A stretch of DNA of 64,000 nucleotides from Erysipelotrichaceae bacterium (GCA_017432005.1 JAFRKA010000003.1:1-64000), one strand, 5' to 3'; counted from the stretch's first letter, positions 50,383 to 56,025 are shown. A program made the numbers and translations. Notes: a model not told the origin generated them from the letters alone.

Positions 50383-51936
50383 TTATTCAACGTCAGAAGA
50401 AACGAGACACTTGATATAGGTGGTGAGTCCGACGTTCTGCGGATAATCGCCCAGCTGTTCCCCACCGATCTCGATCGATAAGAGGATGCCCGGCTCGTAG
50501 TTCTTATAGACGACCGGAACGATATCGTAATTCATGAAGCCTCTGCCAAAGAGATATCTGTGCATGTTCCAGGCGGCATGTTCATAATCGCCTTCAACTG
50601 TCACTTCATCATAGATCGTACCGAATGCTTCGATGATCGCTGTTTCCTGAACGACCGGTCCGCTGGATACATTGTATCCGACTTTTTCACCGGCCTTCAT
50701 CTTGCCGTGATCATTGTAAGTGACAGTGCCCTTCGGTAAGAGCGATGATTCTTCGATCCTTGAGCCGACCAGGATACCGTTGGCTGACAGGAACTTCAGC
50801 AGTTCGTTTTCATCCTGTCCGGTGAAATCCGGCACATCGACATAAGTCTCTTCCTGACCGAGCGATACATAGTATGTTACATAGTCGCCAGTTGAATACT
50901 TGCCGTAGTTGTAAGAGACGATCTTTCCGGCCGGTACAGTATTGGAATAGACGGTCTTGCGGTCGCCTTTCAGTGTCAGCATATCCAGGTAATCGATGAA
51001 GTTGGATTCCTTGCCGCCCTCATAACCCTGCTGAACATAAGCCGGACCGTAGGAGATACCATACTTGAAGTCTTCACCTTTGACGTAGACACCGTTACCG
51101 TGAGTGACGATGTTGCCCTTATCGACTTTGGCGGAGTATGAGTCTCTGCCGGTGATGTGGACAGGATTCAGAGTCAGGCTCTGAGCGATCTTGATGAATT
51201 CGCTCTCGGTCTTGCCGACATATTCACTAGGATTGACGGTGATCGCATTGATGCAGACACCGTAGTTGAATGTTTCATCTTTTTCATAGACGCCTGATCC
51301 GTGCCAGACGATGTTGCCGATCTTGACGTTGGCATCGAACTTGTCACGGCTGGTCTGGTGATTAGGTTTGAGACCTAAGGCCTTGGCCTTCTCTTCAAAC
51401 TGATCGACCGTGATGCCGATGTAGTCGCCGTATTTGACTTCGATCGTCGTATCGACCGGAGCAGCCGGACCAGAAGAGATATAGACGGTCACCGGTGTAT
51501 CCTTGGTGATATGGGCTTCCGGTTCCATCCTGATGACATGGTTCTTTTCAACGGTGTCGCTGGTCTCGTATTTGAAGACGAGTTCCTTCAGACCACTGGC
51601 CTCTTTCCAGACCTCGATATCAGACATCGTGACTTCCGGAGTGATATACGGAATGGCGATCTCTGAAGCGTTGCCGTTGGAAACCTTGAAGTGGATATCT
51701 TCCTTCAGTTTCTTGCCGGCTTTGATTGACTGCTCAAAGACGATGTCCTTTTCGAAGTCGCCGTTATCTTCGTAAGCGATCTCACATGAGTAATCATCGC
51801 TGAGGGTTCCGCACCACTCATAGACGTCTTTGACGTTGCGTCCGACGAACTCTTCAACAACGGTATGTGAAGATGATCCGCCCGAGCATGCGCTCAGCAT
51901 CATTAAGCACGTAAGCAGGATTATTATTCTTTTCAT
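50383..51936 (-). CDS. PASTA-like domain lipoprotein, last gene of the RT operon
   Basis: The 517-residue protein has a lipoprotein signal ending M-L-S-A-C (Cys17). The body is made of several PASTA-like repeats: each has a D-V-x-x-W or T-x-x-E-F helix followed by V-x-V-x-V-S-x-G-type strands, for example VTVYISSGP, VTYYVSLGQ and VGYNVSSGP. PASTA domains bind peptidoglycan fragments, mostly on Ser/Thr kinases and PBPs; here they are on a free lipoprotein. It starts 29 bases after the reverse transcriptase stop with its own GGAGGTTG, before any terminator, so cotranscription is likely. Confidence 0.78.
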   Translation of the reverse strand: MKRIIILLTCLMMLSACSGGSSSHTVVEEFVGRNVKDVYEWCGTLSDDYSCEIAYEDNGDFEKDIVFEQSIKAGKKLKEDIHFKVSNGNASEIAIPYITPEVTMSDIEVWKEASGLKELVFKYETSDTVEKNHVIRMEPEAHITKDTPVTVYISSGPAAPVDTTIEVKYGDYIGITVDQFEEKAKALGLKPNHQTSRDKFDANVKIGNIVWHGSGVYEKDETFNYGVCINAITVNPSEYVGKTESEFIKIAQSLTLNPVHITGRDSYSAKVDKGNIVTHGNGVYVKGEDFKYGISYGPAYVQQGYEGGKESNFIDYLDMLTLKGDRKTVYSNTVPAGKIVSYNYGKYSTGDYVTYYVSLGQEETYVDVPDFTGQDENELLKFLSANGILVGSRIEESSLLPKGTVTYNDHGKMKAGEKVGYNVSSGPVVQETAIIEAFGTIYDEVTVEGDYEHAAWNMHRYLFGRGFMNYDIVPVVYKNYEPGILLSIEIGGEQLGDYPQNVGLTTYIKCLVSSDVE

Positions 51937-51965: not shown

Positions 51966-53225
51966 TCAAACGCTATTTTTTCCAATATCCGTTTTTTCCA
52001 GGGGGCGGAAGAGACCGCCTTCTTCATAACGCTTATAATACTCGTGGATCAGGGAACGATAACCCAGTTTCTTCATGTCGCTGTATCTGATCCGGTACTT
52101 GGCATTGGTCTTGCGGCCGCTGCCGACGATCCTTAGTGATTCCTGAGACAGCTGATCGAGCAGCTTCAGCCTTTCAGTCGAATTGATGATCGTCATGACC
52201 CGGTAGGCAAAGCCTAAGTTTTCAGCGTGCTCACCGGTCGCATAGAACTGTCTGTTTATATAGGCTGCCATCCTTCTTAGAGCTTCTTCCTTGTCAAAGT
52301 AGCCCTTGGAGATGCCACGCAGCAGTCTGTTGGCCCGGTGTTTCATCCTGACGGTGATCTTTTCGTAGGTGTTGTCCGAGATCTCAACGAGGTCCTTGCC
52401 GAACTTGTATCCCAGCAGGTCGTATTCTTCATAAGGCATGATGAGACCTGTCTTCTCTTCGTTCAAAGTCAGGCCCAGTTTGTTTTCCACGATATCTTTG
52501 AGCAGGGCGAGATTTGCTTCAGCACTTTCTTTGTCTTCACACATGACGCAGATGTCATCGGTATAACGCACATAGATCAGCGATCTTTGTGAAAGAGTCT
52601 CATCCAATTCAGCCAGGAAGAGGTTTTCCAGGAAGCTGGTCAGCGGATTGCCGGACATCACGGAAGTGAAGCCTTTTTCCAGAACGCCGTTATGATAGTA
52701 CTCGTTCCTGGTGACCAGCCACATGATGAAACGATGGAACTCCGGTTCGTCTTTCAGCCACTCTTTCAGTTTGACGTCGAGTATGTCGGTATTGATGGTC
52801 TCGCCATAGGAGTGGATATCCGCTTTGATGATATAGTGCTCCCTCTGCGGGTCGTTTCTGATGATGGATCGAAACAGATACAGCTGATTGTTTTCCTTGC
52901 GGAAAGAATAAAGATTGGGACTGTAGCGTTCGTCGTATTTTTCCATGACCATATAGACCATGTACTGCAGAAGCGAGCGGTCGTCGATCGCGAAACTGTA
53001 CACCTTGCGCCGGCGGTTACTGCCAGCCTTCCTAAGCATGATCAGCTTCGGTCTTTCCATGTAGTAATCTCCGGCGATCAGTCTGTCGAGGTCGCTGTCG
53101 ATCCGATCAGAAAAAAAATAATCGCTGACTTCGCGCAGACGCTGATCGTTCATGCTCAGGGATGAGCTTTTCTTTTCAATGAAAGCCTTCTTATTTTCTG
53201 CTTTCTTCATCTCTTCAAAAATCAT
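51966..53225 (-). CDS. Reverse transcriptase (RNA-directed DNA polymerase), not group II intron, class unassigned
   Basis: The 419-residue protein has RT motifs in order: LIMLRKAGSNRRRKVYSF (61-78), NLYSFRKENN, motif A KADIHSYGETI with Asp136, motif B MSGNPLTSFLENLFLAELD (190-208), the catalytic YTDD (221-224), and LGLTLNEEKTGLI then YDLLGYKF. There is no maturase, HNH or protease domain. Motif B has SGNPLTS where most RTs have QGxxxSP. I start at MIFEEM, where AGGAGAG is well placed and ATGA overlaps the upstream stop. It follows two SPOUT genes and a structured RNA. Confidence 0.88.
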   Translation of the reverse strand: MIFEEMKKAENKKAFIEKKSSSLSMNDQRLREVSDYFFSDRIDSDLDRLIAGDYYMERPKLIMLRKAGSNRRRKVYSFAIDDRSLLQYMVYMVMEKYDERYSPNLYSFRKENNQLYLFRSIIRNDPQREHYIIKADIHSYGETINTDILDVKLKEWLKDEPEFHRFIMWLVTRNEYYHNGVLEKGFTSVMSGNPLTSFLENLFLAELDETLSQRSLIYVRYTDDICVMCEDKESAEANLALLKDIVENKLGLTLNEEKTGLIMPYEEYDLLGYKFGKDLVEISDNTYEKITVRMKHRANRLLRGISKGYFDKEEALRRMAAYINRQFYATGEHAENLGFAYRVMTIINSTERLKLLDQLSQESLRIVGSGRKTNAKYRIRYSDMKKLGYRSLIHEYYKRYEEGGLFRPLEKTDIGKNSV

Positions 53226-54115
53226 GATTCTCTCCTGTCGCGGGAAAACAGTTCCCATAGCGCTACCGCCAGATCGCTCTTGTTTATAGAAGAGGCAGAT
53301 GTCCTGCCCGGTACATAAGCTTCCAGATCGAAAGCATATCGTTCATCATAGCGTCCGCTTATAATGCCGCCATCTATGATCAGGGCTCTCTTGCCCTGTT
53401 TCAGTCGCTCATCATCGATCCTCAATGTTTTATCGTTTTCGCTGTCTTTTATCAGGATCGTCGTGAAACCTTTTTTCTTCAGCAGATCAGTGATCGTTTC
53501 GTTACATATCCCCCTTGGGATCGACAGAACATACGCGGCCGACGACCTGATCAGTGTCCGGCTGTAAGGATTGATGTTGTCTTCATACAGTATGCCGTCG
53601 CAGCCCAACGCGATCGCTGTCCGGCAGATCGCACCGATAATACCGGCCTGCTTTTCGCTGTTTTCCCAGTTGCGGAAAACGATTATTCTTTCGCTTTTAT
53701 CGAGGATCTTCTCTGCTTCTGTCAGGGGCTTCTTTTTAAACAGCCCGGCACACCCGACTTTACTTAAGAGATTGTCGCTGCGACCTTCATAGAATTCCTT
53801 ATTGAAATGATACACATGCCTGATCAGACAGACCGGCGAATCGGGATAAAGCCCGATCATTTCTTCTATAAAAGGTGCGTAATGAACGTTGTTTTTGACA
53901 AAGGTCAGGACTGGTTCATATCCTTCTTTTATAGCGACCCGGTGATTATTCCCAAAGAGGACCGCAAACAGTTCGTCTTCAAAGGCGGCGACAGTATCGT
54001 CCTTCAACGAGCAGAAATAATGATCGATGGCCTCGTTATCCGTTTCTGTTCTGTCGATCAGATGCAGCCTTCCGAGCAGATCGTTCTCAAAAGGCATGAC
54101 AGATTCTTTATTCAT
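53222..54115 (-). CDS. SPOUT/TrmH-like protein with degenerate SAM-binding motif, RT-linked
   Basis: The 297-residue protein has an N-terminal domain (1-140) of unknown fold and a C-terminal SpoU/TrmH-like knot: motif 1 QAGIIGAICRTAIALGCDG with Arg165, then NPYSRTLIRSSAAYVLSIP, and a C-terminal SSINKSDLAVALWELF (motif 3). Motif 2, normally N-E-x-x-G-(L/I), reads IDGGIISGR (247-255), so the Glu is lost and SAM use is doubtful. It starts in the end of the upstream methyltransferase gene (8-bp overlap, GGAG 9 bases before ATG) and ends overlapping the RT start. I propose it works as partner of that methyltransferase. Confidence 0.75.
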   Translation of the reverse strand: MNKESVMPFENDLLGRLHLIDRTETDNEAIDHYFCSLKDDTVAAFEDELFAVLFGNNHRVAIKEGYEPVLTFVKNNVHYAPFIEEMIGLYPDSPVCLIRHVYHFNKEFYEGRSDNLLSKVGCAGLFKKKPLTEAEKILDKSERIIVFRNWENSEKQAGIIGAICRTAIALGCDGILYEDNINPYSRTLIRSSAAYVLSIPRGICNETITDLLKKKGFTTILIKDSENDKTLRIDDERLKQGKRALIIDGGIISGRYDERYAFDLEAYVPGRTSASSINKSDLAVALWELFSRDRRES

Positions 54116-54899
54116 GGCTCGCTTCTCCTCTGCCCAGTTCATACAGGGCGATAGCGGCCGCATCAGTCAGATTAAGAGAGTCGGCGTGATTGTACATCGG
54201 GATCGTGATCACGTGATCAGCGCTGTCGATGCTTTCTTCTTTCAGACCGCGAGCTTCATTGCCGACCATGATCGCAGTCCTTTCGGTTTCGATCTTCCGG
54301 ATATCTCTGATATCAAGAGACTGTTTTCTTAGCGCCAGCGCAAAGATCTCATATCCGCATTTTTTCATTAGAGCTCTGTTGGCATGGCGGTCTTCCGGCA
54401 TCTTCACCAGCGGCAGGATCATGTTGCCGAAATCCGTCATACGGGACACATACGGACAGAAAGGGTTTCTTACCGTATCGATGTAGAACAGGTCATCACA
54501 GCCAAAACGGAAACAGTTTTTTATCATATTGGCAACATTGATCAGATAGCTGGGATCTTCAATGATCAGCACTTTCCGGAAACGGCTTATAACTTCTTCA
54601 CAGAAAGGCAGAGGTCCAATGTCCCAGACTGCTTTGATCCCGGAAGGTAAAACGACATCTTCGCTTTTTCTGCTCAGGTATTCGGCTACCTCATCCTTAT
54701 CCGCAAAATAACTTATCAGTTCCGGATATTGCTGTCTTATGATCCTTTCATGTTCTCTTTCTTCTTCACAGTCATCAAAAATGATCGAAAGGGGTCTCTT
54801 TCCCATTTCCAGCAGTTTCATTATCTGATCAAAGTCTTTATAGTATGTGCTTTTTCTGTTTAGATAATTTGTGTCCAGTTCTTCCTGAAGAGTTCTCAT
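54108..54899 (-). CDS. SPOUT/TrmH-family RNA methyltransferase, first gene of the RT operon
   Basis: The 263-residue protein has a SpoU C-terminal domain with intact motif 2 IMVGNEARGLKEE (N214, E215) and motif 3 DHVITIPMYNHADSLNLTDAAAIALYE. Motif 1, NVANMIKNCFRFGCDDL, has Lys127 where the usual catalytic Arg stands. The family methylates ribose 2'-OH of tRNA or rRNA. I use the ATG at 54899; a TTG at 54923 would begin inside the RNA stem. There is no clear ribosome binding site. The ATG is 16 nt from the structured RNA and the stop overlaps the next gene. Confidence 0.78.
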   Translation of the reverse strand: MRTLQEELDTNYLNRKSTYYKDFDQIMKLLEMGKRPLSIIFDDCEEEREHERIIRQQYPELISYFADKDEVAEYLSRKSEDVVLPSGIKAVWDIGPLPFCEEVISRFRKVLIIEDPSYLINVANMIKNCFRFGCDDLFYIDTVRNPFCPYVSRMTDFGNMILPLVKMPEDRHANRALMKKCGYEIFALALRKQSLDIRDIRKIETERTAIMVGNEARGLKEESIDSADHVITIPMYNHADSLNLTDAAAIALYELGRGEASHE

Positions 54900-54915
54900 C
54901 TTGTTTTCAGTAAAG

Positions 54916-55042
54916 CAAGGCAAGGGAAGCCTTTGAAAGCGAAAGCCTCAGAACAGCACCTTGCATCAAGCCGTCCGCCAGGCCACTTACAGATACAGGA
55001 ACTGTTCACATGCGGACGCGCGAAACGCGCACCCTTGCCTTG
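54916..55042 (-). ncRNA. Structured RNA with self-complementary ends upstream of the SPOUT-RT genes
   Basis: On the minus strand the 127-nt element begins CAAGGCAAGGG (55042-55032) and ends CCCTTGCCTTG (54926-54916), a perfect 11-bp terminal stem. Inside are a GCGCG-UUU-CGCGC hairpin (55030-55018), a GUCCGC/GCGGAC stem (55017-55012 with 54978-54973), a possible AGGCUUU hairpin (54948-54928), and GAACAG/CUGUUC (55007-55002 with 54956-54951), which would cross the second stem as a pseudoknot. A TATAAT box puts transcription start at the first stem base. It could be a cofactor or template RNA for the RT, or a leader that controls translation. It matches no RNA family I know. Confidence 0.6.
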
Positions 55043-55047
55043 ATTTA

Positions 55048-55053
55048 ATTATA
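55048..55053 (-). promoter_or_regulatory. -10 box of the structured RNA/SPOUT/RT operon
   Basis: A perfect TATAAT on the minus strand is followed by TAAATCAAGG, so transcription should begin within a few bases of 55042, the 5' end of the RNA terminal stem. No convincing -35 is seen at 17 bp; TTGCGC lies at 20 bp. Confidence 0.6.
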
Positions 55054-55107: not shown

Positions 55108-56025
55108 TTATCTGTTTATGCTGGCAGCCATACGGTGATACGTATGACGAACACCCCTTATTACGATACTGTAGGCGATGATATTTTCCGGAAGAGCCAT
55201 GCCCAGATACCCGGAATCACCGATGTGATGGATGTCTGTTCCGGTCTGCTTGGCCATCAGAGCGATCCTTCTGATCGTTTCGGTGTCAGCCCCTTCCTGG
55301 CTGGTGCCGATCGCCGTAAGTGTCAGTTTACCCAATTCATGAGCCTTCTCGACTCTTTTCTTTACCCATCCGATATCGACGCCCGGAACCGTTCCCGGTG
55401 AAGGCATCAGGATGATGTCGGCTCCCGCTTTTGCGAACTCTTCCACCTCTTCAACAGAAAGGATGGCTTCAGCTCCCTCTTTCAGGATGCCGCTGGCATG
55501 CATCTTTCCTGCAGCCAGGATCACGCTGTTACCCAGATCTTCACGGATCGCTTTTATCGAACCGATGATCGCTTCGTTGGATACACCGTTGCCCGGATTA
55601 CCGGTCAGGACGATCATATCCACACCCATCTCGACAGCCTTCCTGGCATTTTCAGGCGTAGCTGTCCGTCCTGAGCTCAATGCCCAGACGCTGCAGTCTT
55701 CTTCATTTATCTTTGCCGGTTCCAGATTGATGGCGATCGGTCTGCCTGTCAGTTTCTTCAAGGTCCTGATCGTCTCGCTTTTTTCGCATTCCGGCAAGCC
55801 CCTGATCACCGGATCATCGACATCAAAGATATTCAGGATGATCAGATCTGCACCCATCGCTGCGACCATTTCGGCGTTGGTGATATCTTCGCCAAGCGGT
55901 TGTGTCATACTGACACACTCGCCCGCCAGCACCCTGCCTTCGCTGCCTGCGATCGCTTCCAGCAGTTCAAACGAACTCATTTTTAAAAAATCAGAGGCAA
56001 AACAGTTAAGTATCCTTTTATGCAT
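55108..56025 (-). CDS. TIM-barrel protein of unknown function (PEP-mutase/HisA-like)
   Basis: The 305-residue protein shows alternating strands and helices of a TIM barrel: AGECVSMTQPLGEDITNAEMV, DLIILNIFDVDDP, PIAINLEP, DMIVLTGNPGNGVSN, SVILAAGKMHASG, GADIILMPSPGTVPG and a final KLTLTAIGTSQEGAD. Relatives are annotated as haloacid-dehalogenase-like or DUF7916 proteins, though the barrel argues for a lyase or mutase-like fold. Function and substrate are unknown. AAAGGAATAAACGAT precedes the ATG. It is upstream of the RT operon promoter and not clearly part of it. Confidence 0.7.
   Translation of the reverse strand: MHKRILNCFASDFLKMSSFELLEAIAGSEGRVLAGECVSMTQPLGEDITNAEMVAAMGADLIILNIFDVDDPVIRGLPECEKSETIRTLKKLTGRPIAINLEPAKINEEDCSVWALSSGRTATPENARKAVEMGVDMIVLTGNPGNGVSNEAIIGSIKAIREDLGNSVILAAGKMHASGILKEGAEAILSVEEVEEFAKAGADIILMPSPGTVPGVDIGWVKKRVEKAHELGKLTLTAIGTSQEGADTETIRRIALMAKQTGTDIHHIGDSGYLGMALPENIIAYSIVIRGVRHTYHRMAASINR

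What the first reader, a model, noticed from the sequence alone, without database searches (positions are those of the whole stretch)
51966..55053. Candidate new system: structured RNA, two SPOUT methyltransferase-like proteins and a reverse transcriptase in one coupled operon
Seen: one promoter, a 127-nt self-complementary RNA, then three ORFs joined by overlaps of 8 and 4 bases, ending with an RT that has no maturase, HNH, protease or other fused domain. Known: retrons, DGRs, group II introns, RT-CRISPR and several defence RTs (DRT/Abi types) pair an RT with an RNA or an effector. Inference: two TrmH/SPOUT-like partners are not part of any RT system I know; they could methylate the RT template or a target tRNA/rRNA, giving an RNA-modifying defence or stress system.
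Basis: partly seen in the sequence, partly recalled or inferred. Interest (0 to 1): 0.86.

Follow-up and report, generated by a model that had tools for sequence, protein, structure and literature searches.

The report
Reverse-transcriptase RNA system with methyltransferase pair
This gut-bacterium operon is a divergent member of a known but uncharacterised group of probable antiviral reverse transcriptases (UG26) that nearly always travel with a knotted small RNA; its unusual part is a pair of complementary, half-degenerate RNA-methyltransferase genes beside the RT, seen in none of about 115 other loci of the group.

Summary
On the minus strand at 55053-51966 lie a -10 box, a 127-nt structured RNA, two SPOUT-family genes and a reverse transcriptase, with overlaps of 8 and 4 bases. 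The RT belongs to UG26, a catalogued defence-associated RT group (275 bits against 105 for the next model). I collected 115 other UG26 loci. Most carry a six-helix pseudoknotted RNA directly upstream of the RT, the known Rfam family RT-5 (RF03026). A covariance model built without the window finds the window's RNA as its best hit in 64 kb (29.5 bits, E 2e-4), although Rfam's own RT-5 model misses it. So RNA and RT are a divergent example of a known module, not a new system. What is new is the partner. About 80% of UG26 loci carry one unnamed ~180-aa gene upstream of the RNA. The window instead has two TrmH-like proteins between RNA and RT, the layout of DRT10 (ncRNA, effector, RT). Their losses are complementary: one keeps the SAM site but lost the catalytic arginine, the other keeps the arginine but lost the SAM site. 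This predicts a split-active-site heterodimeric RNA methyltransferase. The combination was found once only; defence, cDNA and methylation are untested.

The parts
55048..55053 (-). -10 box TATAAT, 5 bases upstream of the RNA; no good -35
   Evidence: sequence; not listed by the promoter scan
54916..55042 (-). 127-nt pseudoknotted ncRNA, divergent RT-5-type / UG26-associated RNA: P1 55042-55032/54926-54916; P2 hairpin 55030-55026/55022-55018; P3 (pseudoknot) 55017-55012/54978-54973; P5 55007-55002/54956-54951; P4 54997-54992/54967-54962; P6 54948-54945/54940-54937, then TCAAAG
   Evidence: covariance models built without the window: R1 18.5 bits E 0.005 in 9 kb; R2 29.5 bits E 2.2e-4 in 64 kb; fold z -3.8
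54108..54899 (-). P3: TrmH-like SPOUT protein, 263 aa, predicted SAM-binding subunit (motif-1 Asn, GNE, SLN kept; catalytic Arg replaced by Lys)
   Evidence: SpoU_methylase E 1e-22; TrmH chains E 1e-11; motif alignment
53222..54115 (-). P2: degenerate TrmH/TsnR-like SPOUT protein, 297 aa from the ATG at 54115, predicted Arg-donating/RNA-binding subunit (AICRT kept; SAM-site motifs lost)
   Evidence: TsnR-type chains E 4e-6; Foldseek best hit TrmH 1v2x E 5e-7 on a low-confidence model; motif alignment
51966..53225 (-). UG26-group reverse transcriptase, 419 aa from the ATG at 53225, YTDD active site, no fused domain
   Evidence: PADLOC RT_UG26 274.8 bits E 2.4e-82; UG26 subclade, support 0.996

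Best explanation
A divergent UG26 defence-associated RT (DRT) module. One transcript starts with an RT-5-type pseudoknotted RNA and continues into P3, P2 and the RT. The RT binds the RNA and copies a short stretch of it, as DRT2, DRT9 and DRT10 RTs do. P3 and P2 pair as a heterodimeric SPOUT RNA 2'-O-methyltransferase with one composite active site: P3 holds SAM, P2 supplies the catalytic arginine and RNA contact. The pair fills the partner slot that SLATT fills in DRT10 and that the c1 protein fills, upstream of the RNA, in most UG26 loci. Most likely the pair is the effector or switch of the system, methylating a tRNA, an rRNA or the system's own RNA when infection perturbs the RT-RNA complex. 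Shown: UG26 membership, RNA homology and structure, gene order and overlaps, TrmH homology, complementary motif loss. Inferred: one transcript, heterodimer, activity, substrate, cDNA synthesis, defence.
For: RT: UG26 274.8 bits, next model 104.6; the related loci tested also hit UG26 first; active-site YxDD and the invariant UG26 positions are kept. RNA: 30 family RNAs give 96.4% paired cells and 97 two-sided changes against 23 in shuffles, pseudoknot included; found beside about 70 of 80 distant UG26 RTs; Rfam RT-5 in 6 of 6 loci tested; same 11 of 36 genus genomes as the RT. The window RNA is the best hit of models that never saw it, and its pseudoknot helix, which was not part of the model, pairs 6 of 6. 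SPOUT: complementary motif retention; in TrmH one subunit binds AdoMet while Arg41 of the other is catalytic (PMC5372735). Layout: DRT10 is a 137-nt ncRNA, then SLATT, then RT (PMC12632851); L165 is a second UG26 locus with a gene between RNA and RT, ending in a 4-base overlap.
Against: The SPOUT pair is seen once, so its link to the RT rests on overlaps and position, not conservation. The window RNA match is modest (E 2e-4, rough calibration) and Rfam's RT-5 model does not see it even at E 10. P3 and P2 are very divergent (22% identical to each other), and P2 has a 4-residue insertion in motif 1, so both could be catalytically dead. The genes around the operon look like housekeeping and lipoprotein genes, not a defence island (ORF list, by eye). 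No defence data exist for UG26 in the papers searched.
Confidence: 0.5

Rival explanations
1. P2 and P3 are no longer enzymes: a SPOUT-derived RNA-binding dimer that folds or protects the RNA or anchors the RT within the UG26 module.
For: P2 lost the motif-1 Asn and motif-2 Glu and P3 the catalytic arginine; long branches; c1, the usual partner, has no recognisable enzyme domain.
Against: P3 keeps Asn, Glu, Ser and Asn of motifs 1-3, all needed for TrmH catalysis (PMC5372735), which a mere RNA binder need not keep; the losses are complementary rather than shared.
Confidence: 0.25
2. The SPOUT genes methylate the template RNA itself, marking where copying stops or protecting it from nucleases, and are not an effector (a narrower form of the best explanation).
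For: They lie directly after the RNA in what looks like the same transcript; a 2'-O-methyl can pause an RT (general knowledge).
Against: About 115 other UG26 loci manage without a methyltransferase beside them, so the RNA does not generally need one.
Confidence: 0.2
3. Chance neighbours: two host-type TrmH-like genes became caught between an ordinary UG26 RNA and its RT, with no joint function.
For: No other UG26 locus has them; related TrmH-like genes stand alone elsewhere in the order; UG26 flanks are variable.
Against: Overlaps of 8 and 4 bases, intact ORFs between RNA and RT, complementary motif loss in the pair, and no P2 relative with E below 1e-17 outside the operon in the sampled genomes.
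Confidence: 0.15
4. A retron, group II intron derivative or other mobile RT rather than a UG26 system.
For: Generic RT similarity to group II maturases (101 bits) and retron RTs (37 bits).
Against: Both are far below their cut-offs (300 and 235 bits), no group II intron RNA was found, and UG26 wins by 170 bits over the next PADLOC model.
Confidence: 0.03

Closest known systems
UG26 reverse transcriptases (PADLOC RT_UG26, 'DRT')
   Same: Best profile by a wide margin over nearly the whole protein; same RNA type upstream.
   Different: Only 23-30% identical to the nine members aligned with it; partner genes differ; RNA separated from the RT by two genes.
RT-5 RNA (Rfam RF03026)
   Same: Same order of helices, pseudoknot, length and TCAAAG-like element before the closing stem.
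   Different: Not detected by Rfam's model even at E 10; found only with a wider model; the closing stem has wholly changed sequence.
DRT10 (UG17 + ncRNA + SLATT)
   Same: Order ncRNA (137 against 127 nt), partner gene(s), RT; UG17 is among the next best UG profiles for UG26 RTs.
   Different: Different RT group; SPOUT pair instead of the SLATT protein; products unknown.
TrmH / TsnR-type SPOUT 2'-O-methyltransferases
   Same: Homologous SPOUT domain, with the catalytic motifs shared out between P2 and P3.
   Different: Almost all known members are described as homodimers (PMC9508554); here the motifs are split over two genes.
UG26 with c1 gene (common form, including other loci of this genome)
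   Same: UG26 RT with RT-5 RNA.
   Different: A single ~180-aa gene of unknown function upstream of the RNA; no SPOUT.

Membership tests
UG26 defence-associated RT group | Best and near full-length match to the UG26 profile | tested here: met
   274.8 bits, residues 13-411 of the protein, profile 3-396/398
UG26 defence-associated RT group | Intact RT active site (YxDD and conserved UG26 positions) | tested here: met
   YTDD at 232-235; Asp147, Gly203 and Asp219 invariant
UG26 defence-associated RT group | Protects against phage | not testable with these tools
   no experiment; no paper found on UG26 defence
RT-5 RNA (RF03026) | Reaches Rfam gathering score 45.7 | tested here: not met
   no RT-5 hit in the window region at E up to 5 and up to 10
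RT-5 / UG26 RNA in the wider sense | Six-helix pseudoknotted fold shared with UG26 RNAs | tested here: met
   models R1 and R2, built without the window, pick this site first; all helices can be drawn
DRT10 | RT of group UG17 | tested here: not met
   UG17 67.5 bits against UG26 274.8
DRT10 | SLATT partner gene | tested here: not met
   partners are SPOUT-family proteins
DRT10 | Order ncRNA, partner, RT | tested here: met
   compare PMC12632851
DRT10 | Tandem-repeat cDNA primed by a C-terminal residue | not testable with these tools
   conserved C-terminal Tyr392/400/407/408 are candidates only
TrmH-family SPOUT methyltransferase, P3 | Motif 1 Asn and Arg, motif 2 Glu, motif 3 Ser and Asn | tested here: not met
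   all but the Arg, which is Lys
TrmH-family SPOUT methyltransferase, P2 | Same residues | tested here: not met
   Arg kept, motif 3 Ser and Asn kept; motif 1 Asn and motif 2 Glu lost
TrmH-family SPOUT methyltransferase, P2+P3 together | Complete residue set across a dimer | tested here: inconclusive
   the set is complete if the two pair; pairing not tested
Retron | Retron RT model score | tested here: not met
   36.7 bits against cut-off 235 (St85 model)
Group II intron | RT/maturase score and intron RNA | tested here: not met
   101 bits against cut-off 300; no intron RNA

The most novel reading that the evidence does not exclude
A DRT whose effector or regulator is a split-active-site, obligately heterodimeric SPOUT 2'-O-methyltransferase, which methylates the template RNA or a host tRNA/rRNA in response to infection: RNA-modification immunity coupled to reverse transcription.
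Probability: 0.3. Interest if true: 0.82.

Novelty: new variant of a known kind. Interest (0 to 1): 0.58.

Why it matters
It ties loose ends together. UG26 is a catalogued but, in the papers searched, unstudied RT group; RT-5 is an orphan structured RNA; the evidence here says they are one system, widespread in gut and rumen Bacillota and Bacteroidales, with a pseudoknotted RNA ready to test as an RT template. The window adds a variant in which the partner is a pair of RNA methyltransferase halves, suggesting that the partner slot is exchangeable and that RNA modification can be coupled to a bacterial RT. If the heterodimer is real, it would also be an unusual split SPOUT enzyme, since SPOUT enzymes are described almost entirely as homodimers.

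Tried and rejected
Retron and group II origin: scores far below cut-offs. New RNA family: first thought likely after the covariation result, then rejected when Rfam identified the related RNAs as RT-5. Close relatives of the operon: none by RT in 84,980 species genomes, IMG/VR or, at E 1e-50, 392 phylum genomes; plasmid RT matches are all below 60% identity, mostly group II introns; none by P2 in IMG/VR, 295 order and 395 class genomes beyond distant stand-alone relatives, and only one weak plasmid and two weak phage matches. SPOUT beside other UG26 RTs: one TrmH-like gene 3.5 kb away on the other strand in L165, taken as unrelated. Function of c1: AlphaFold model pLDDT 82.5, order H-EEE-H-E-H, but no significant PDB match; a nuclease-like fold is only a guess. 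The P2 model is low confidence (46.6) and used only because Foldseek still returns SPOUT enzymes first. Empty site: the flanking DUF7916 gene has different neighbours in the genus relatives checked, so no clean empty site could be shown. A template stretch in the RNA could not be assigned. The UG-group paper (doi 10.1093/nar/gkac467) and the paper I believe first described RT-5 (doi 10.1093/nar/gkx699, from memory) are not in the library, so I cannot exclude that they already link UG26 and RT-5.

Full report
OBSERVATION. Reading 5' to 3': TATAAT (55053-55048), a 127-nt structured RNA (55042-54916), P3 (54899-54108), P2 (54115-53222) and RT (53225-51966), with overlaps of 8 and 4 bases when the internal ATG starts are used. 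The RNA folds better than all 200 shuffles, z -3.8. The promoter is the weakest element: the -10 box is good but no proper -35 is found, and the scan result is no better than shuffles.

RT IDENTITY. Pfam gives RVT_1 only. Among PADLOC models UG26 scores 274.8 bits over nearly the whole protein; the next best is 104.6. The group II and retron models stay far below their cut-offs. Relatives of this RT at E below 1e-25 occur in 40 of 273 genomes of the same family; the related RTs tested also hit UG26 first, at 200 to 606 bits. The window RT is 23-30% identical to the nine others aligned with it and sits in a small divergent subclade (support 0.996) with L142, L148, L149, L171, L083 and L098/L099; its nearest relative is L142. 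Catalytic and other invariant positions are kept.

RNA IDENTITY. The stretch before the RT in related loci contains a conserved 125-134-nt RNA. Thirty of them, without the window, support six helices including a pseudoknot: 96.4% of cells paired, 21 pairs with two-sided changes (10.8 in shuffles), 97 such cells (23.2 in shuffles), and sliding the partner by 1-3 columns drops pairing to about 44%. A covariance model from these (R1) finds the RNA in 71 of 80 UG26 loci fetched independently by their RT, in 70 of them just upstream of it (the L158 hit lies elsewhere). Rfam calls it RT-5 (RF03026) in 6 of 6 loci tested. In the genus, RT-5 is found in 11 of 36 genomes, exactly the 11 with a UG26-type RT, and in none of 14 control genomes.

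THE WINDOW RNA. Rfam's RT-5 model does not report it even at E 10. R1 places its best hit exactly at 55042-54916 (18.5 bits, E 0.005 in 9 kb). The wider model R2 (81 RNAs, window excluded) places its best hit at 55041-54917 with 29.5 bits, E 2.2e-4 over 64 kb; the second-best site has 14.7 bits. The calibration is short, so these E-values are rough. All six helices can be drawn, and the pseudoknot helix GTCCGC/GCGGAC, not part of either model's structure, pairs 6 of 6 in the aligned position. I take it as a divergent member of the same RNA class.

PARTNER GENES. In the 112 loci with enough upstream sequence, 90 have one gene family, c1, about 180 aa, upstream of the RNA. It has no convincing Pfam match and its AlphaFold model (pLDDT 82.5) no significant PDB match. 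Other loci differ: L088 has a Schlafen-group-3-type helicase upstream; L171 has a gene of the same sequence cluster after the RT; L165 has a SAP/DUF6434 gene between the RNA and the RT, overlapping the RT by 4 bases. None of the 115 distinct loci has a SPOUT gene next to the RT. The window genome itself has two further RTs of this type with RT-5 RNA, one only about 34 kb away.

THE SPOUT PAIR. P3 matches TrmH chains at E 1e-11; P2 matches TsnR-type chains at 4e-6, and its low-confidence model returns TrmH first in Foldseek (E 5e-7). Aligned with ordinary relatives, P3 keeps the motif-1 Asn, motif-2 Glu and motif-3 Ser/Asn but has Lys for the catalytic Arg. P2 keeps that Arg (AICRT) and the motif-3 Ser and Asn but has lost the motif-1 Asn and motif-2 Glu. 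In TrmH one subunit binds AdoMet while Arg41 of the other acts as catalytic centre (PMC5372735; the authors call the mechanism hypothetical), so the two losses would be complementary in a P3-P2 heterodimer. This is an inference from sequence; pairing was not tested. The nearest P2 relatives in the order are ordinary stand-alone RNA methyltransferase genes at about 30% identity.

MECHANISM. DRT10 is a 137-nt ncRNA, a SLATT gene and an RT in that order, all three needed for defence, and its RT copies a short loop of the RNA into tandem repeats (PMC12632851). The window has the same order and nearly the same RNA length, with the SPOUT pair in the SLATT position. I therefore propose an RNA-templated DRT whose partner is a split RNA 2'-O-methyltransferase, acting on tRNA, rRNA or its own RNA. 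The evidence supports the RT and RNA assignments well, the heterodimer moderately, and the substrate and defence role only by analogy. The stated confidence of 0.5 is for the whole chain; for 'UG26 RT with an RT-5-type RNA' alone I would put it near 0.9.

NOVELTY. UG26 and RT-5 are both known entries. I found no paper in the searchable library that joins them or mentions SPOUT with a defence RT, but the two papers most likely to join them are not held. The SPOUT variant is new in the material searched and rests on one genome.

Noticed in passing
G000 contig C29 87232-88278 (-) and C8 2267-3430 (+), outside the window: Two more UG26-type RTs with RT-5 RNA in the same genome, the first about 34 kb from this operon; the C8 copy has one in-frame TAA in the RT.
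   Followed up: partly
L083-L202, gene upstream of the RNA: A conserved ~180-aa protein (c1; C-terminal GIPYLRFY...GWWNTRxYV or GYPFINF...EHYPN) accompanies 90 of 112 UG26 loci and has no known family; predicted order H-EEE-H-E-H.
   Followed up: partly
L165 4090-6044: RT-5 RNA, then a SAP/DUF6434 gene, then a UG26 RT with a 4-base overlap: another exchange of partner in the slot between RNA and RT.
   Followed up: partly
L088 6991-9853 and L171 4968-7872: UG26 RTs with a Schlafen-type helicase gene upstream (L088) or a gene of the same cluster downstream (L171).
   Followed up: partly
window 54998-54987 (-): Short direct repeat CTGTAT CTGTAA in the RNA at the P4 strand and loop; unclear whether it relates to a template.
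   Followed up: no
window 54899 (-) and first genes after the RNA in related loci: The gene directly after the RNA has no obvious Shine-Dalgarno sequence, here and in related loci where that gene is the RT.
   Followed up: no
window 50383-51936 and 55108-56025: Flanking genes are a PASTA-repeat lipoprotein and a DUF7916 protein; DUF7916 has different neighbours in the genus relatives checked.
   Followed up: partly
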